Shown one piece after another: positions 8,791-22,004 of a DNA stretch of 22,021 nt (within the stretch, counting starts at the first letter, position 1; every line of letters starts with the position of its first letter). The notes under the pieces are model-generated. The model had not been told where the DNA came from and searched no databases. It saw nothing but the letters and a program-made list of their open reading frames with translations. The stretch comes from a virus. The stretch spans positions 1 through 22,021 of the IMG/VR virus record IMGVR_UViG_3300034092_002372; one strand, given 5' to 3'. The position numbers and the translations under genes were made by a program.

Positions 8791-10011
8791 TCAGGTCTGG
8801 GCCGCGAGGCCAGTCGAAACGCAGAAGGCTTCGGGGAAACGAACGCCCACGTCGACGGTCATTCCGGCGAGGATCTGGGTCTGGCGCTTCGTGAAGTTCG
8901 TGCCTTCGCGGCTTGCCGCGAGGACCATGGTGCCCCACTCCGCGACCATCGAAGCCGCGAACGCACCCAACAAGATCTTGTCGTTGGGCAACTGCGTCGA
9001 CAGCACGTAGCGGTGACCAAGCACGCGCTCGATCATGCTGCCGTCGATGAACGGACGAACCTTCGGGTTGACGTTCGCGCTGCTCGACACGGTGTCGAGT
9101 TGCTTGCGAAGTTGACGGAACTGGTTCGGGTGGAAGGCCCACACGAACTCGCCCACGGTCTGCGCGTTGTCCTCGAACAACTTGTGCTCCATGTTGATGA
9201 GCTCGTTGTACGAGGTGGCCGCATCAAGAGCACCAGTGAACGATTGGGTGTTGATGCCACTCGTGTTCATGATGCCCGTCGGCTGACCAGCGGCACCCGT
9301 GCCGTTGAACACCGCCGCGTCGATCTTGAGACCGATGTCGCGGGCCAGTTGAGTGCGCACGAGTTGCTCGGCACCAGGAGCGCCCAGCTCGATCAGACGA
9401 TTCGACAGCGTGCAGAGCGCGAAGACGTCGTGCGGGTACAGGTCGATCTGTCCGAAGGACATGTCGCCGCTCGTGACGGCTTCGACCTCACCCAGCCAGT
9501 AGGCCGTGGTCGCGCCCGTGATCTTCGGGATCTGCACCGGCGAGCCGGTCAAGCCAGACATGCGCACGGTGCCGGCCTGATAGGCCACGATCGCCGCTTG
9601 CAGCAGCGGGATGATCTGGGCCGACATGACTTGGTTCGGCACGATGAAGCCGCCGAGCGAGTCGACGGTCGTCACCATGTCCTTCGTCACCACGGCCGAG
9701 TCCATCGTGCCCGCCGCGGCCGAGCACATCTCGTACTCGAGCGGAGCGAACTTCGCGACGTTGCCCTTCATCAGGCCGCCGATGAGCTTGGCGAAGGAGA
9801 ACTCCTTCACCTCCTTGCTGTCCTGCGCCAGACCGGGCACCGCGAAGCGAGCCGCCTTGGCGTCGGCTTCGCGACGCTGGGCGTCCAGCTTCTCGTCCAG
9901 TTGCTTGGCAAGACGCTCGCACAACGCGGCGTCACGCTGGTCCAGATTCGACTTGAGCTGGCCGATGAGCGCCTGCGACAGCGCCTCGACCGACTGGTTG
10001 TTGATTTCCAT
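8791..10011 (-). CDS. Major capsid protein, HK97 fold
   Basis: A 406-residue protein starts at the ATG at 10009-10011 with AGAGGAAAG upstream. The first 65 residues are charged and helical (QALIGQLKSNLDQRDAALCERLAKQLDEKLDAQRREADAK), like an HK97 delta domain that scaffolds assembly and may be removed by the protease. The body has the usual HK97-fold signatures: GGFIVPNQVMSAQIIPLL (about 119-136), VQIPKITGATTAYWLGE, DLYPHDVFALCTLSNRLIELG, a DIGLKIDAAVFNGTGAAGQPTGI stretch (the N-G-x-G...P-x-G-I hallmark), and C-terminal strands ending in FCVSTGLAAQT. It follows the prohead protease directly, as usual. Confidence 0.92.
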   Translation of the reverse strand: MEINNQSVEALSQALIGQLKSNLDQRDAALCERLAKQLDEKLDAQRREADAKAARFAVPGLAQDSKEVKEFSFAKLIGGLMKGNVAKFAPLEYEMCSAAAGTMDSAVVTKDMVTTVDSLGGFIVPNQVMSAQIIPLLQAAIVAYQAGTVRMSGLTGSPVQIPKITGATTAYWLGEVEAVTSGDMSFGQIDLYPHDVFALCTLSNRLIELGAPGAEQLVRTQLARDIGLKIDAAVFNGTGAAGQPTGIMNTSGINTQSFTGALDAATSYNELINMEHKLFEDNAQTVGEFVWAFHPNQFRQLRKQLDTVSSSANVNPKVRPFIDGSMIERVLGHRYVLSTQLPNDKILLGAFAASMVAEWGTMVLAASREGTNFTKRQTQILAGMTVDVGVRFPEAFCVSTGLAAQT

Positions 10012-17466: not shown

Positions 17467-17978
17467 TCCAGCACCGTCCGCAGTCCTGCCTGCGGCGTCC
17501 ATGAAAGCATCGGCTGGCCCTCCTTGCGGATCATCCGATAGCCGTCGCGCATCATCGGCTCGATGACGCCGACGCGGCTGTACTGCATGCGCGCCGCGTA
17601 GCCGGCCGACTTCGCCGGCCAGTAGTACGGCCACACGAACACCGACGACAGCACGACGAGGCCACGCCAGTCGCCAAGCGTCCAGACCGAGTCCATGTAC
17701 GTGATCGCCTGGTGCATCGCCTCGTCGAGCGTCTTGCCGCTGCGCTTGCACTCCACGCCCACAAAGCCCTCGTTCCAGCCGGCCGCGATGGCCTCCGGCG
17801 TCGGCACGAGAATCATGTCGATGCGACGCTGGGTCTGGATATGCCAGAGACCGGAACTCTTGCCATGCACCTCGTCGTAGATCTTGAACAGGCGCGAGAG
17901 CTGGATCCGTCGACGGATGTCCTCGACCGATCGCTTCTCGTCCGCAAAGCCCTCGACGCTTAGAAGTTGGTCGGCCAT
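17463..17978 (-). CDS. PD-(D/E)XK nuclease candidate coupled to the helicase
   Basis: A 171-residue protein starts at the ATG at 17976-17978, overlapping the helicase stop as TGATG. An in-frame ATG at 17990 would add four residues. It shows the nuclease pattern RIDMIL (Asp54), then FVGVECKR (Glu76, Lys78), and QAITY (Gln90, Tyr94). The D-(x)n-E-x-K core together with a Q-x3-Y motif is typical of RecB/Cas4/AddB-like nucleases. The N-terminal helix EKRSVEDIRRRIQLSRLFKIYDEVH leads into the core, and the C-terminal part is aromatic (VFVWPYYWPAKSAGY). Encoded right after a UvrD-type helicase, it may cut DNA as part of recombination or processing of replication ends. Nuclease activity is inferred from the motif only. 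Confidence 0.68.
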   Translation of the reverse strand: MADQLLSVEGFADEKRSVEDIRRRIQLSRLFKIYDEVHGKSSGLWHIQTQRRIDMILVPTPEAIAAGWNEGFVGVECKRSGKTLDEAMHQAITYMDSVWTLGDWRGLVVLSSVFVWPYYWPAKSAGYAARMQYSRVGVIEPMMRDGYRMIRKEGQPMLSWTPQAGLRTVLE

Positions 17979-19657
17979 CACTGGTCCCATTCTACATACG
18001 CGTTCCGCTCACTCCGGCCGAGGAGCACGAGCTTGCGCGCGGCGCGCGTCATCCCGACGTAGAAGACACGACGGACCACGTCGCGCTGCGCCGGCAAGCC
18101 GACCCACTCCTCCATGCCCTGCCTCGACAAGTCCGGCGAGAGGTAGACCACGTCGGCCTCCGCGCCCTTGACGCTGTGGATCGTGCCGACGATCACCCGC
18201 GGCTTCTCGGTCAAGGCGGCCACGCCGCGCGCCGCGGCGATAGCCGTCGCGTACTCGCAACGCTTCCGGGCATCCGGCAGCAGGAGGTCGACGAGGATCT
18301 CCCACGGCCGCTCGGCCGTCAGGGCCGCAAGCAATTTGTCGAAGGCCTCAGGCAAGACCAGCTCCCATAGCTCGCTGTCCTCCAAGCCGCGGGTCCACTT
18401 GGTCGATTCGTCGACGCGGCCCTTGAGTGCCTCCTTGCCGCCGCGCACGAAGAAGCCCGCGGCCTTGACGTGCTGCGCCCATCGCCACATGACCTTCGGC
18501 GTCCACCACCGCCGGCGCTCGATCAGGTCGTCGAGGCGCTCGCCGCCGAACAGGTCCGGCCGGATGGTCTCGAGGAAGGCGCGAAGGATCTCCACGCCGC
18601 CGCGGAGTGGGTTCCAGTCGCCGCGCGCGACGAACGGGTTGTGGTAGGGCACGCCGGCCCGCCGCAGTTCCCGCAGCGCGCCGTTCAAGTGGTATGCGCA
18701 TGACGCCAGCACCATGCATGTCTGGCCCTTCGCGAGCTCGGCCACGAGGTCTTTCACGACGAGGTCGGCCTGCTTGAGGGAAAGCCACCATGCGCCGTCC
18801 CGGCGTTCGACCACGCCGTCCTCGTCCTTGGGGAAGTACTCGAATGGGTAGCGCCAGCTCGATCGGTTGATCCAACTGACCGCCATCGAGTGGACCGCCT
18901 TCGGCACGCGCCACGACTTCGATAGCACGCGGTAGGAGTCCGCCGGCAGTTCCGGCTCGAGGAATGCCCGAGGGCTCGCGCCCTTGAAGTGGAAGATCGA
19001 CTGGTCGGGATCGCCGACCAGCACCACGCCTTCGAGGTCGCTCGCCCACTTCCTGACGAGCGCCAGCTCCAGCGGCGAGAAGTCCTGGACTTCGTCGTAG
19101 CACGCGATGCGCACGCCGTTCGGCGGGCCGAAGCTGTCGAGGCACACCTCGATGAGGTCGGTGAAGTCGTAGTACCCGGCGACCGCCTTCCATTCTTTCC
19201 AAAAAGAAAAGAATTCACGAGCCGCGCTCGACCACTCCTCCTGCGGACGCTGTCGCGCCCTAAGCGTCTGGGAAGCCCTCAGAGCAGCGTCGCCGCTCGA
19301 CTGGGCCTCGGAGTCGTCCACGACCGCGAAGTCGTCGCTGACGCGCGCAGAGCGGCCCGTAAGGTGCCACGCCGTCGTGTGGTGCTGGGCCATCCACTCG
19401 TTGAAGTCGGCCGTGTGGCTTTCGGCCAAGGCCGGCTGGCCGAGGATGCGGAAGCAGATCGCGTGCAGGGTGCCCACGTTCCGCTCCTCGATGTCGATCC
19501 CGCGACGCTTGATCTCGCGGGCGGCCGTCGTCGTGAAGCTGGCGAGGAGGATTTCGTCCCGGCCGAACTTGTCACGCCACTGCTGGACCTGCCGGACGAC
19601 CCACGAGGTCTTGCCCGTCCCGGGAGGTCCGATGACTCGGTACTCCTTCAGCGTCAT
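17978..19657 (-). CDS. UvrD/Rep/PcrA-type superfamily 1 helicase
   Basis: With the ATG at 19655-19657 (GAGG eight bases upstream) the protein has 559 residues. A longer reading from 19750 is rejected because it has no better start. The helicase motifs are complete: I GPPGTGKT (10-17), Ia LLASFTTTAAR (37-47), II DEVQD (188-192), III VLVGDPDQSIFHFKGA (212-227), IV LSKSWRVPKAV, V GTIHSVKGAEAD (491-502) and VI VFYVGMTRAARKL (531-543). It should unwind DNA from 3' to 5', as the family does. It is followed without a gap by a PD-(D/E)XK nuclease, which suggests a split AddA/RecB-like pair or a replication-repair role. The primase upstream lacks its own helicase domain, so this enzyme may serve the replication fork. 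Confidence 0.92.
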   Translation of the reverse strand: MTLKEYRVIGPPGTGKTSWVVRQVQQWRDKFGRDEILLASFTTTAAREIKRRGIDIEERNVGTLHAICFRILGQPALAESHTADFNEWMAQHHTTAWHLTGRSARVSDDFAVVDDSEAQSSGDAALRASQTLRARQRPQEEWSSAAREFFSFWKEWKAVAGYYDFTDLIEVCLDSFGPPNGVRIACYDEVQDFSPLELALVRKWASDLEGVVLVGDPDQSIFHFKGASPRAFLEPELPADSYRVLSKSWRVPKAVHSMAVSWINRSSWRYPFEYFPKDEDGVVERRDGAWWLSLKQADLVVKDLVAELAKGQTCMVLASCAYHLNGALRELRRAGVPYHNPFVARGDWNPLRGGVEILRAFLETIRPDLFGGERLDDLIERRRWWTPKVMWRWAQHVKAAGFFVRGGKEALKGRVDESTKWTRGLEDSELWELVLPEAFDKLLAALTAERPWEILVDLLLPDARKRCEYATAIAAARGVAALTEKPRVIVGTIHSVKGAEADVVYLSPDLSRQGMEEWVGLPAQRDVVRRVFYVGMTRAARKLVLLGRSERNAYVEWDQ

Positions 19658-19687: not shown

Positions 19688-19748
19688 GCGCACGCCTGCC
19701 GCGATCCTGCCAAGGGCCTCCCCCCCTGTTTCGCGCGCGCACGGGAGC

Positions 19749-19780
19749 AAAAAAGGGCCTTGGCCGACCAGAAAAGCCCT
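19749..19780 (-). terminator. Rho-independent terminator between primase and helicase
   Basis: On the minus strand the arms AGGGC(TT) and (AA)G-GCCCT form a stem with one bulged G, followed by a run of six T. It lies downstream of the TGAGAGAC array and upstream of the helicase leader. It would end transcripts coming from the primase gene and implies a separate promoter for the helicase operon. Confidence 0.65.
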
Positions 19781-19816
19781 GCACTGCTAGGGGATTTCAT
19801 GGGCGTGCCCTCCCCT

Positions 19817-19998
19817 TGAGAGACCTTGAGAGACCTGAAACAGGTACCCCAACACCTAGTCTCTCACCGCAAGACCTTGTGCTGCATACACTTACGCTCA
19901 TTTTGCCCCCTGTGAGAGCTGAGAGACCAGCCCCAAACTCCGAGGAGCCTCGCAAAAGTTCCCGTGCGCGCGCGTACTCGCGCGCCTCAGGTCTCTCA
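19817..19998. repeat. Array of TGAGAGAC boxes (iterons or operators)
   Basis: Five exact copies of TGAGAGAC occur in the intergenic region between the primase and helicase genes. They are at 19817-19824 and 19827-19834 (direct, 10-base spacing), 19859-19866 (inverted), 19920-19927 (direct) and 19991-19998 (inverted). A variant TGAGAGCT lies at 19913-19920. Four of the five are extended to TGAGAGACC. Repeated boxes in both orientations next to a replication primase suggest an origin or a multi-site operator; the sequence does not tell which. Confidence 0.65.
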
Positions 19999-20013
19999 CC
20001 TCTCCCACCGCGA

Positions 20014-21906
20014 TCAGAACGGCACGCCATCAGACCCCTCCTCCCGGATGTCGAGCAGCACGACGTCTGGATCCCAGATCAGCCGGCCGCCTTTGGTCAC
20101 CTTCCACGCGGTGCGCTGAAGCCGGCCTTTGCGGTCGTCCGCGATCTGGCCGTCCTTCGACTTGAGCCGGAAGTTGAACTTGTCGCTCGTGCAGTCGCAG
20201 CGGCTGAGGGCCACGCCGATTTCCTTGGCGAACCTGAAATTTTGGAAGCCGGCCGGGAGCGAGTTCTGGACGGTCATCAAGCCTTCGGTCGTCAGCCAGA
20301 CCTCCCCTTGATGAACGAACGGCTGGTTCTGGCTGATGGCGTCGTCGCGCGGCAGGTCGAGGCTGGCCTGCACCATCAGGCGCTGCACAAGGACCGTCAG
20401 GCTGATCTCGACCGCGCCGCCGTATCCAATGTCCACCCGCTCGACAAGTCGCAGCAGGCGCGAGAAGAGGCCGTCTGGCGCGAGCCAAACGCTCGACCGC
20501 ATCGTCCCGATGTTGAGCTGGAGTCCGTCGGCGATGCGCGCGGCGAACTTGCTGTGTTCGCGTAGGTTCTCGATCGCGCCGACCTTCACCTGCCCGGCCA
20601 TCGTGTACAGGACGTGGTCCCCGTTGTCGCCGCCGAAGCGCACGAGGCGCAGAAACGCCTTGTGCTTGGGAATGTCGAGCGTCTCATTGACGATCGCGAA
20701 CGCGGCGGCGACGAGCTGGTCGGCTTCGACTTGGGCTGGCTGGGCGGACGGGACGACGGGCGCGTTGATCGGTTCGCCCTTCTCGTCGACCGCGATCTGG
20801 AGGATCGGCTGTTCACGGACGGTGGCGCGCACGGCTTCGAGCTCGTCGAGCGTGGCGTCCAGTTGATCCATGCGCATGGAGTTCGCGATCTCGTCGTTGC
20901 GCTCCTGAAGTTTCTTGTCGTTGTGCTGCTTGCGTGCCTTGGCGATCGTGCGCGTCAGCTTCTCGGCGTTGAAGTCCTTGCGATCCATGGACCCGCCGTG
21001 CTTGCGGCGGTGTGCGATGAGTACGTCGCAGATCTCTTGATCCTCCCACCCGTCGTAGCTGACCAGGCGTGACGCGAGCGACATGTCGTACTCGGAGTCG
21101 GACTTGAACTTCTTGGTGCGGTGCCACACGGCGTGGAAGTTCAGGTCGTGCGCGAGAAGGACGTCGAGCTTGGCCGATGGCTTGACATCGAGGTCGATCG
21201 CCAGCGGATGCAGGACCTCGACCTTGGTGATGGACCGCGGCTTGGCGGCGAAGTCGTCGAAGTCGGACGGGTTGTAGCGCGGGATCGGATCGAAGGGCGT
21301 CGATGCGACGGCGAGTCGCGGCGGCGTGTACTTGTGGTTCAGCGTGCCGGGTAGCCGGAGGATGCGCGAGAGGTCGTACGTGTTGTCGACCGTGTAGTCG
21401 GCGACCTTCCGCACGAATTGCTGGAAGCCCTCGACGATGGCCTGCGCGCGCGAACGCTCCTCGTCGGTCTCGAGGATCCACGGTTCCTTGAACAGCCACC
21501 AGCCGTGGATGCCGCCGCCAGTCGTGTTGATGATGCTGGGCTTGAGCGGGAGGTGCATGACGACGTCGACGATCTTCTTCATCTCGGTCGGCAGTCCGGC
21601 CTTGCCGTGCTGCTCGTTCTTGACGTCCATGTCGATCCAGATCCCGCCGATGACGGACGCGGACCGCACGCTTCCGCGCGCGAACTCCGGCGCGGACTTG
21701 GCGTCTTCGCGCGCCTTGACTTCATCGTGCAGGGCGCAGGTGAAGTAGGTATTGCACTTGTGGTGGTGCTTGGCGGCGAACTCGGCGGCGGCGTCGATGC
21801 TGGTGAACCAGTGCGCGCGCTTGCCGGATTCTTGCCAGATGACCAGCTTGTGCTGTTCGGATACGGAGTCGCCGAAGATGGCGTGCAGGAAGGAGGCGGA
21901 GTCCAT
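20014..21906 (-). CDS. Primase-polymerase of the archaeo-eukaryotic primase superfamily
   Basis: With the ATG at 21904-21906 the protein has 630 residues. The reading frame continues to a GTG at 21978, but that codon lies inside a hairpin. The three AEP motifs are visible: IWIDMDV with Asp92 and Asp94, TTGGGIHGWWLF with His134, and YDLSRILRLPGTLNHK with Asp178 and the RLPGT signature. Residues 285-345 (MSLASRLVSYDGWEDQEICDVLIAHRRKHGG, AEKLTRTIAKAR) resemble a primase C-terminal (PriCT-like) domain. The remaining 280 residues are not recognised and contain no Walker A motif, so no helicase is fused. The enzyme should synthesise primers, and perhaps DNA, at the phage origin. The next region downstream carries repeat boxes that may be that origin. 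Confidence 0.87.
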   Translation of the reverse strand: MDSASFLHAIFGDSVSEQHKLVIWQESGKRAHWFTSIDAAAEFAAKHHHKCNTYFTCALHDEVKAREDAKSAPEFARGSVRSASVIGGIWIDMDVKNEQHGKAGLPTEMKKIVDVVMHLPLKPSIINTTGGGIHGWWLFKEPWILETDEERSRAQAIVEGFQQFVRKVADYTVDNTYDLSRILRLPGTLNHKYTPPRLAVASTPFDPIPRYNPSDFDDFAAKPRSITKVEVLHPLAIDLDVKPSAKLDVLLAHDLNFHAVWHRTKKFKSDSEYDMSLASRLVSYDGWEDQEICDVLIAHRRKHGGSMDRKDFNAEKLTRTIAKARKQHNDKKLQERNDEIANSMRMDQLDATLDELEAVRATVREQPILQIAVDEKGEPINAPVVPSAQPAQVEADQLVAAAFAIVNETLDIPKHKAFLRLVRFGGDNGDHVLYTMAGQVKVGAIENLREHSKFAARIADGLQLNIGTMRSSVWLAPDGLFSRLLRLVERVDIGYGGAVEISLTVLVQRLMVQASLDLPRDDAISQNQPFVHQGEVWLTTEGLMTVQNSLPAGFQNFRFAKEIGVALSRCDCTSDKFNFRLKSKDGQIADDRKGRLQRTAWKVTKGGRLIWDPDVVLLDIREEGSDGVPF

Positions 21907-21917
21907 GGCGGAGCGAG

Positions 21918-21939
21918 CGTGCGCGAGAGAAAGCGCACG
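21918..21939. promoter_or_regulatory. Hairpin in the primase leader
   Basis: A 7-bp stem CGTGCGC/GCGCACG encloses the 8-base loop GAGAGAAA, 12 bases upstream of the primase start codon. It could hide the translation start, which itself has no clear Shine-Dalgarno sequence. The surrounding leader is low-complexity: pyrimidine-rich on the minus strand, GAGAGAG-like on the plus strand. Confidence 0.4.
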
Positions 21940-21970
21940 AGAGAGAGGGACGGTGCGGAGCGTGGATGGA

Positions 21971-22004
21971 GGAGCCACGCTCGTGGTTGGCCGAGCGTGG
22001 CTCC
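21971..22004. terminator. Perfect 13-bp hairpin at the right edge
   Basis: GGAGCCACGCTCG pairs perfectly with CGAGCGTGGCTCC around an 8-base loop. On the plus strand it is followed by GTTTCG, and on the minus strand by TCCATCC, so no strong T-run exists on either side. It lies 65 bases upstream of the primase start and probably ends a transcript from outside the window or structures the primase leader. Confidence 0.5.

What the first reader, a model, noticed from the sequence alone, without database searches (positions are those of the whole stretch)
19817..19998. TGAGAGAC box array beside the primase gene
Five exact 8-base copies plus one variant occur within 182 bases in both orientations, two of them 10 bases apart (one helical turn). 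The boxes lie between the primase-polymerase and helicase genes together with GC hairpins. This is the best candidate for the replication origin or a cooperative repressor operator in the window.
Basis: partly seen in the sequence, partly recalled or inferred. Interest (0 to 1): 0.6.

Follow-up and report, generated by a model that had tools for sequence, protein, structure and literature searches.

The report
Phage replication origin beside primase gene
The repeated TGAGAGAC boxes are most likely protein-binding sites that mark where this uncultivated phage starts copying its DNA, and the same layout with different box sequences follows the primase gene in many unrelated phages, including the laboratory phage TM4.

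Summary
In detail: five exact TGAGAGAC copies plus one variant in 182 bp, between a primase gene and a UvrD-type helicase gene. There are none elsewhere in the 22 kb, and no octamer clusters this tightly in 300 shuffles. In distant relatives (45% identical primase) the same spot keeps the same layout, but every box has changed together to TGTAGTAGGATC. Lineage-specific box arrays lie directly 3' of the primase gene in many other phages, among them TM4, Cheetobro, FP_Epona and THSA-485A. The primase differs most between lineages in its C-terminal part. In the pair Cheetobro/Ruthiejr the primase-helicase core is ~99% identical, yet its last ~90 residues and nearly all boxes have changed. GC skew changes sign at the array in the window's own group. 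Phage P4, with annotated 8-bp origin repeats directly 3' of its primase gene, is the best-studied parallel. I conclude that this is an iteron origin (or cis-required replication region), probably read by the primase's C-terminal domain. It differs from P4 and PICI origins: the primase is archaeo-eukaryotic without a fused helicase, there is no AT-rich stretch, and an inverted GC element is added. Binding and origin activity are inferred, not shown.

The parts
19817..19834 (+). Block D: two TGAGAGAC boxes in tandem, 10 bp apart (19817-19824 and 19827-19834)
   Evidence: identical in L001-L003
19859..19866 (-). Block C: single box
   Evidence: distance to block B (54 bp) is the same in L005, which has a different box
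19911..19928 (+). Block B: 18-bp double box TGTGAGAGCTGAGAGACC (variant half 19913-19920, exact box 19920-19927)
   Evidence: L005 has a tandem reversed pair at the equivalent place
19990..20007 (-). Block A: 18-bp double box TGGGAGAGGTGAGAGACC (exact box 19991-19998)
19960..19974 (+). TCCCGTGCGCGCGCG, inner copy of the inverted GC element, next to a CG hairpin (19966-19985)
   Evidence: CCCGTGCGCG occurs only twice in the window, both here
19732..19746 (-). TCCCGTGCGCGCGCG, outer inverted copy of the GC element
   Evidence: both copies also in L004-L006, one exact plus one altered in L022
19720..19726 (-). G7 run following the outer GC element
   Evidence: pattern CCCGTGCGCGCGCG N2-8 AGGGGGGG found in 8 viral contigs, reversed control pattern 0
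20014..21978 (-). Primase-polymerase of the archaeo-eukaryotic (AEP) type, 654 aa; motifs WIDMD (114) and TGGGIHGW (153), no Walker A; C-terminal part (~361-654) is the proposed box reader
   Evidence: PHROG 2478; Foldseek to RepB' primase and CAPP prim-pol; motif scan; identity by segment
17978..19657 (-). UvrD/Rep-type helicase with Walker A GPPGTGKT, first gene after the array

Best explanation
The region 19732-20007 is the phage's replication origin, or its essential cis-acting replication region. The TGAGAGAC boxes are iterons, in four blocks with orientation (read along the primase gene) + / - - / + / - -. They are bound as duplex DNA by the product of the adjacent gene, a primase-polymerase, most likely through its fast-evolving C-terminal part. 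Binding would bend or melt the DNA and bring in a helicase (the UvrD-type helicase encoded next is the first candidate). The primase domain would then lay down primers, so that forks leave in both directions. Shown here: the array, its conservation of position and layout, coordinated box change between lineages, concentration of primase divergence in the C-terminus, and the skew switch. Inferred: that the protein binds the boxes, that replication starts here, and which helicase acts.
For: (1) The array is non-random and unique in the record. (2) It is kept in L001-L003 while spacer bases vary. (3) L004-L006 (primase 45-47% identical) have the same gap, orientation order, B-to-C distance of 54 bp and inverted GC element, but the box is TGTAGTAGGATC. 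(4) In 16 of 31 surveyed phage loci the strongest octamer cluster 3' of the primase gene beat every control window of the same locus; 3 more have visible arrays that a few control windows equalled (L024, L081, L082), 2 have degenerate boxes. TM4 and 4 clear further loci of 11 (L121, L127, L128, L131) add to this. (5) Clostridial and mycobacterial phages keep ~99-108 bp between the two central blocks although boxes differ. (6) Primase identity window/L005 is 52-65% over residues 1-360 and 26-45% after that, against 70% for UvrD and 77% for SNF2. (7) Cheetobro/Ruthiejr: protein ~99% identical over the core, last ~110 columns 75%, and nearly every box changed from GGGGACAT to AGGGACAT. (8) GC skew changes from negative to positive at the array in G002 and G003, and more weakly in G001; third-position skew of co-directional genes in G003 changes from -0.16..-0.24 to about 0 exactly there. 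(9) P4: 8-bp 'ori type 1 repeats' directly 3' of the alpha primase gene, found by the same octamer count. (10) PICI origins and SaPI/SCCmec iterons lie directly 3' of the initiator gene and are read by its C-terminal domain (PMC6092414; PMC7581432).
Against: No binding or replication data. About a third of the surveyed phages with related primases have no array (L026, L029, L089, L092, L095, L097, L098; L122, L123, L126). In the mycobacteriophage set, box similarity correlates no better with the C-terminus (rho 0.61) than with the rest of the protein (0.65), and C-termini often vary anyway. The C-terminal part has no recognised fold. There is no AT-rich stretch (gap 62.5% GC, window 64.1%). 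FP_Epona and THSA-485A show no skew switch at their arrays. In P4 the region behind the primase gene is 'crr' and a second repeat set marks ori itself, so the array could be only the cis-required part.
Confidence: 0.77

Rival explanations
1. The boxes are a cooperative operator: a phage repressor or activator binds them to control transcription of the UvrD-terminase-structural genes.
For: The array lies upstream of a gene in a long co-directional operon, and box pairs 10 bp apart fit cooperative binding.
Against: No promoter-like site in the region. Arrays follow the primase gene even where the next gene is RusA, endonuclease VII or a hypothetical gene. Box change tracks the primase. Boxes spread over 180-300 bp with a fixed ~100-bp gap in other phages, and skew switches here.
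Confidence: 0.1
2. It is a cis-acting replication element but not the start site itself, like P4 crr (copy control or helper region), with the true origin elsewhere in the genome.
For: In P4 the repeats directly 3' of alpha are annotated crr and a second set lies at ori several kb away. Contigs of this phage are incomplete.
Against: No second box cluster in 22 kb of the window or 23.7 kb of the near-identical contig; skew switches at the array.
Confidence: 0.1
3. The functional unit is a folded single strand: a large stem-loop origin as proposed for plasmid pRN1 and Bordetella phage BIP-1, or a transcript leader/terminator.
For: Inverted boxes can pair (18-nt arms 89% complementary). The pRN1 stem-loop lies just 3' of its prim-pol gene (PMC4234260). 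Fold z-score -2.0.
Against: Most phages have tandem same-direction boxes with no pairing partner close by; 5 of 100 shuffles fold at least as well; no Rfam match; coordinated change of tandem copies is expected for duplex-binding sites.
Confidence: 0.06

Closest known systems
Phage P4 crr/ori with alpha protein
   Same: 8-bp repeats in both orientations, annotated as 'ori type 1 repeat', directly 3' of the primase gene, with pairs 9 bp apart; the box GGTGAACA resembles GGTGAGAG.
   Different: P4 alpha carries Toprim primase and D5-type helicase in one protein and a second repeat set at ori; the window's primase is AEP-type without Walker A and no second set was seen.
PICI / SaPI replication origins (pri-rep-ori) and the SCCmec Cch2 origin
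   Same: Iterons directly 3' of the primase/initiator gene; element-specific iterons; C-terminal domain as reader shown for Cch2 and reported for SaPI Rep (PMC6092414, PMC7581432). Related phages L034, L093, L094 carry the same Cch-type HTH_56 domain.
   Different: PICI origins have an AT-rich region between iteron sets and a fused or adjacent initiator helicase; the window has no AT-rich region and no helicase in the primase, and adds an inverted GC element. PMC6092414 called the organisation unique to PICIs.
pRN1 plasmid ORF904 prim-pol and its downstream origin
   Same: Prim-pol gene with the essential origin region directly downstream (PMC4234260).
   Different: pRN1 needs a ~100-nt stem-loop and its protein has a fused SF3 helicase; no iteron array is described there.
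RSF1010 RepB' primase
   Same: Among the best-matching known folds for the N-terminal domain, solved with its initiator DNA (3h25).
   Different: Sequence identity is 11%; RSF1010 iterons are read by a separate initiator, RepC (own knowledge, not tested).

Membership tests
P4-type alpha/crr origin | 8-bp repeats in both orientations directly 3' of the primase gene | tested here: met
P4-type alpha/crr origin | Toprim primase and D5-type helicase in the same protein as the repeat reader | tested here: not met
   window primase: AEP motifs, no Walker A, no Pfam domain
P4-type alpha/crr origin | second repeat set at a separate ori | tested here: inconclusive
   none in 22-24 kb, but contigs are incomplete
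PICI/SaPI pri-rep-ori | iterons immediately 3' of the initiator gene | tested here: met
PICI/SaPI pri-rep-ori | two iteron sets flanking an AT-rich region | tested here: not met
   gap 62.5% GC versus 64.1% for the window; AT-rich stretches occur in relatives L030, L033, L034
PICI/SaPI pri-rep-ori | initiator binds the iterons through its C-terminal domain | not testable with these tools
   indirect support only
Iteron replication origin in general | replication starts at the repeats | tested here: inconclusive
   GC-skew switch at the array in G002, G003 and weaker in G001; no mapping data
Transcriptional operator array | boxes overlap a promoter | tested here: not met
   no sigma-70-like site; other promoter types not covered
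AEP prim-pol | DxD and GxH catalytic motifs and prim-pol fold | tested here: met
   WIDMD, TGGGIHGW; Foldseek probability 0.92-1.00 to RepB' and CAPP prim-pols, E-values only 0.02-0.05

The most novel reading that the evidence does not exclude
A class of phage origins in which the initiator is a helicase-less primase-polymerase that itself reads the iterons. The inverted CCCGTGCGCG elements on opposite strands would act as paired priming sites for the two forks, and a separately encoded UvrD-type helicase would be recruited instead of a self-loading ring helicase.
Probability: 0.25. Interest if true: 0.75.

Novelty: new variant of a known kind. Interest (0 to 1): 0.6.

Why it matters
If right, one simple rule (look just 3' of the primase/initiator gene for a lineage-specific box array) locates the replication origin in a broad range of phages from sequence alone. 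That includes TM4 and other cluster K mycobacteriophages; the cluster K paper, as searched here, describes other repeats but no origin array there. The same arrays show origin specificity changing repeatedly while layout stays fixed, which gives natural experiments on how an initiator and its origin co-evolve. It also shows that the organisation once called unique to PICIs occurs in ordinary phages.

Tried and rejected
(a) Chance clustering: rejected. (b) RNA family, promoter or terminator: none. (c) GC skew as a general test: works in the window's group but not in FP_Epona or THSA-485A, so it is only supportive. (d) Rank correlation of box similarity with C-terminal identity in 11 mycobacteriophages: did not separate the C-terminus from the rest. 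(e) Structure of the C-terminal part: modelled (pLDDT 75.5, pTM 0.52), no PDB match. My impression that residues ~560-626 form a winged helix rests on secondary structure alone. (f) A looser GC-element pattern mostly gave hits without a box array, several inside coding sequence. (g) Meiothermus MMP7 has no array. (i) That the AEP domain itself tracks the arrays: rejected, because arrays also follow DnaG-type primases (L093, L094).

Full report
OBSERVATION. The window is an IMG/VR virus record of 22,021 bp. All identified phage genes read leftward: primase (20014-21978), UvrD helicase (17978-19657), then terminase, a portal-MuF fusion, capsid and tail genes. No octamer reached five copies in 182 bp in 300 dinucleotide shuffles. 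Two blocks are in fact 18-bp double boxes facing each other. A perfect 15-bp inverted pair, TCCCGTGCGCGCGCG, encloses three of the four blocks, and CCCGTGCGCG occurs only at these two places in the window.

CONSERVATION WITH A CHANGED BOX. Three near-identical contigs (L001-L003) keep every exact box, while bases between boxes vary. Three more distant contigs (L004-L006, primase 45-47% identical) have a gap of similar size at the same place. It has the same order of block orientations, the same GC element in inverted copies and the same G7 run, but the box is TGTAGTAGGATC. The distance from the second to the third block is 54 bp in both groups. A position-preserving, coordinated change of all copies is what a duplex binding site and its reader do when they co-evolve.

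A WIDER RULE. A profile of the primase found 63 loci. In a survey of 31 phage loci, the strongest octamer cluster in the 750 bp behind the primase gene exceeded every control window of the same locus in 16. Three more had an array equalled by a few control windows (L024, L081 = TPA4, L082 = Aminay), and two had degenerate boxes visible by eye (L022, L025). The rest had none. Isolates with arrays include GMA4, TPA4, Aminay, Marcoliusprime, Urkel, Cheetobro, Bock, MLC-A, THSA-485A and FP_Epona, and TM4. Relatives in bacterial genome assemblies add L121, L127, L128 and L131, with a weak L130; six others were negative or not better than controls. Boxes differ in almost every lineage, yet the two central blocks stay ~99-108 bp apart in clostridial and mycobacterial phages. 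Two of these phages (L093, L094) have a DnaG-type zinc finger instead of the AEP domain, with a DUF927 helicase and a Cch-type HTH_56 domain; the mycobacterial protein has D5_N/DUF5906. The arrays therefore belong to initiator proteins of several architectures, not to the AEP domain as such.

WHO READS THE BOXES. Between the window and L005 the primase is 52-65% identical up to residue 360 and 26-45% beyond, while UvrD (70%) and SNF2 (77%) are better conserved overall. In mycobacteriophages the helicase core is 81-82% identical and the last 110 columns 17-34%. The sharpest case is Cheetobro versus Ruthiejr. Their primase-helicases are ~99% identical across the core, and differences concentrate at the two ends of the protein, in particular the last ~90 residues; nearly every box changes from GGGGACAT to AGGGACAT. 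Spacer bases in that gap differ too (70.5% identity overall), so the change is not confined to the boxes. Binding of iterons by the C-terminal domain has been shown for SCCmec Cch2 and is reported for SaPI Rep (PMC7581432). Against over-reading: the rank correlation over 55 phage pairs did not single out the C-terminus, and the window's C-terminal part has no recognised fold.

ORIGIN EVIDENCE. In the contig of L001 (G002) the 5 kb left of the array have skew -0.116 and the 5 kb right +0.076; the maximum of this contrast over the contig lies within 0.5 kb of the array. The contig of L005 (G003) behaves the same, and that of L022 (G001) more weakly. In G003 the five co-directional genes on the left have third-position skew -0.16 to -0.24, and those on the right about zero. 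Leftward negative and rightward positive is the sign of an origin, and gene direction does not change there. FP_Epona and THSA-485A do not show it. The positive control is P4: its record annotates 8-bp 'ori type 1 repeats' in crr, directly 3' of the alpha primase gene, and a second set at ori. The same octamer count finds them (GGTGAACA, 5 copies behind alpha, 11 in the genome).

MECHANISM. I infer that the prim-pol binds its boxes, opens the DNA and primes. The window's protein has AEP motifs (WIDMD, TGGGIHGW) and a prim-pol fold but no Walker A, unlike the P4-, mycobacterial- and clostridial-type initiators. A separate helicase is therefore needed; the UvrD-type gene next door has one (GPPGTGKT). 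The inverted GC elements on opposite strands could be priming sites for the two forks. That is speculation prompted by the fold match to RSF1010 RepB' bound to initiator DNA.

COMPARISON. It works like a P4 or PICI origin but fails two membership features: no helicase-bearing initiator and no AT-rich region. I therefore call it a new variant of a known kind. [quoted passage not shown] the phages listed here appear to share it.

LIMITS. No experiment was done. The contigs are incomplete. The survey loci are not independent of each other, and the array definition (exact octamers) misses degenerate boxes.

Noticed in passing
L113:8077-8300 (TM4 record about 44.08-44.30 kb): Mycobacteriophage TM4 carries a box array (TGACGGAT-like) behind gp70, overlapping the annotated small ORF gp71, with ~105 bp between the central pairs; a ready laboratory test of the origin model.
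   Followed up: partly
L012:939-1199 and L013:7641-7664 plus flanks: An unrelated low-GC phage group carries CCCGTGCGCGCGCGCGAGGGGGGG next to repeated GCGGGTACCCC boxes and a TATATATA stretch, between amidoligase and terminase genes rather than beside a primase. A reversed control pattern has no hits in the collection.
   Followed up: partly
window:20014-20034 (-): The primase ends in an acidic tail with VPF (also in L005 and L022), resembling the SSB C-terminal tip DDDIPF; a possible docking signal.
   Followed up: no
L084:5703-5918 and 9775-9914: Thermus phage Riverbug has eight GGTAGTCA boxes inside the end of its annotated primase gene and a second array of eight GTTCACCA boxes 4 kb away.
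   Followed up: no
L083:5130-5777: Meiothermus phage MMP7 encodes as a separate gene a protein similar to the C-terminal part of the L025 prim-pol, so that part may exist as a stand-alone domain.
   Followed up: no
L092:5656-8739: Rhizobium phage RHph_TM27B protein annotated 'putative integrase' is a prim-pol relative, probably misannotated.
   Followed up: no
L087:9597-9824 and L115:4594-4819: Cheetobro and Ruthiejr differ by one base in nearly every box, with changes in the last ~90 residues of a primase-helicase whose core is ~99% identical.
   Followed up: yes
window:11889-14318 (-): Portal protein fused to a Mu F-like domain in one 809-aa reading frame.
   Followed up: no
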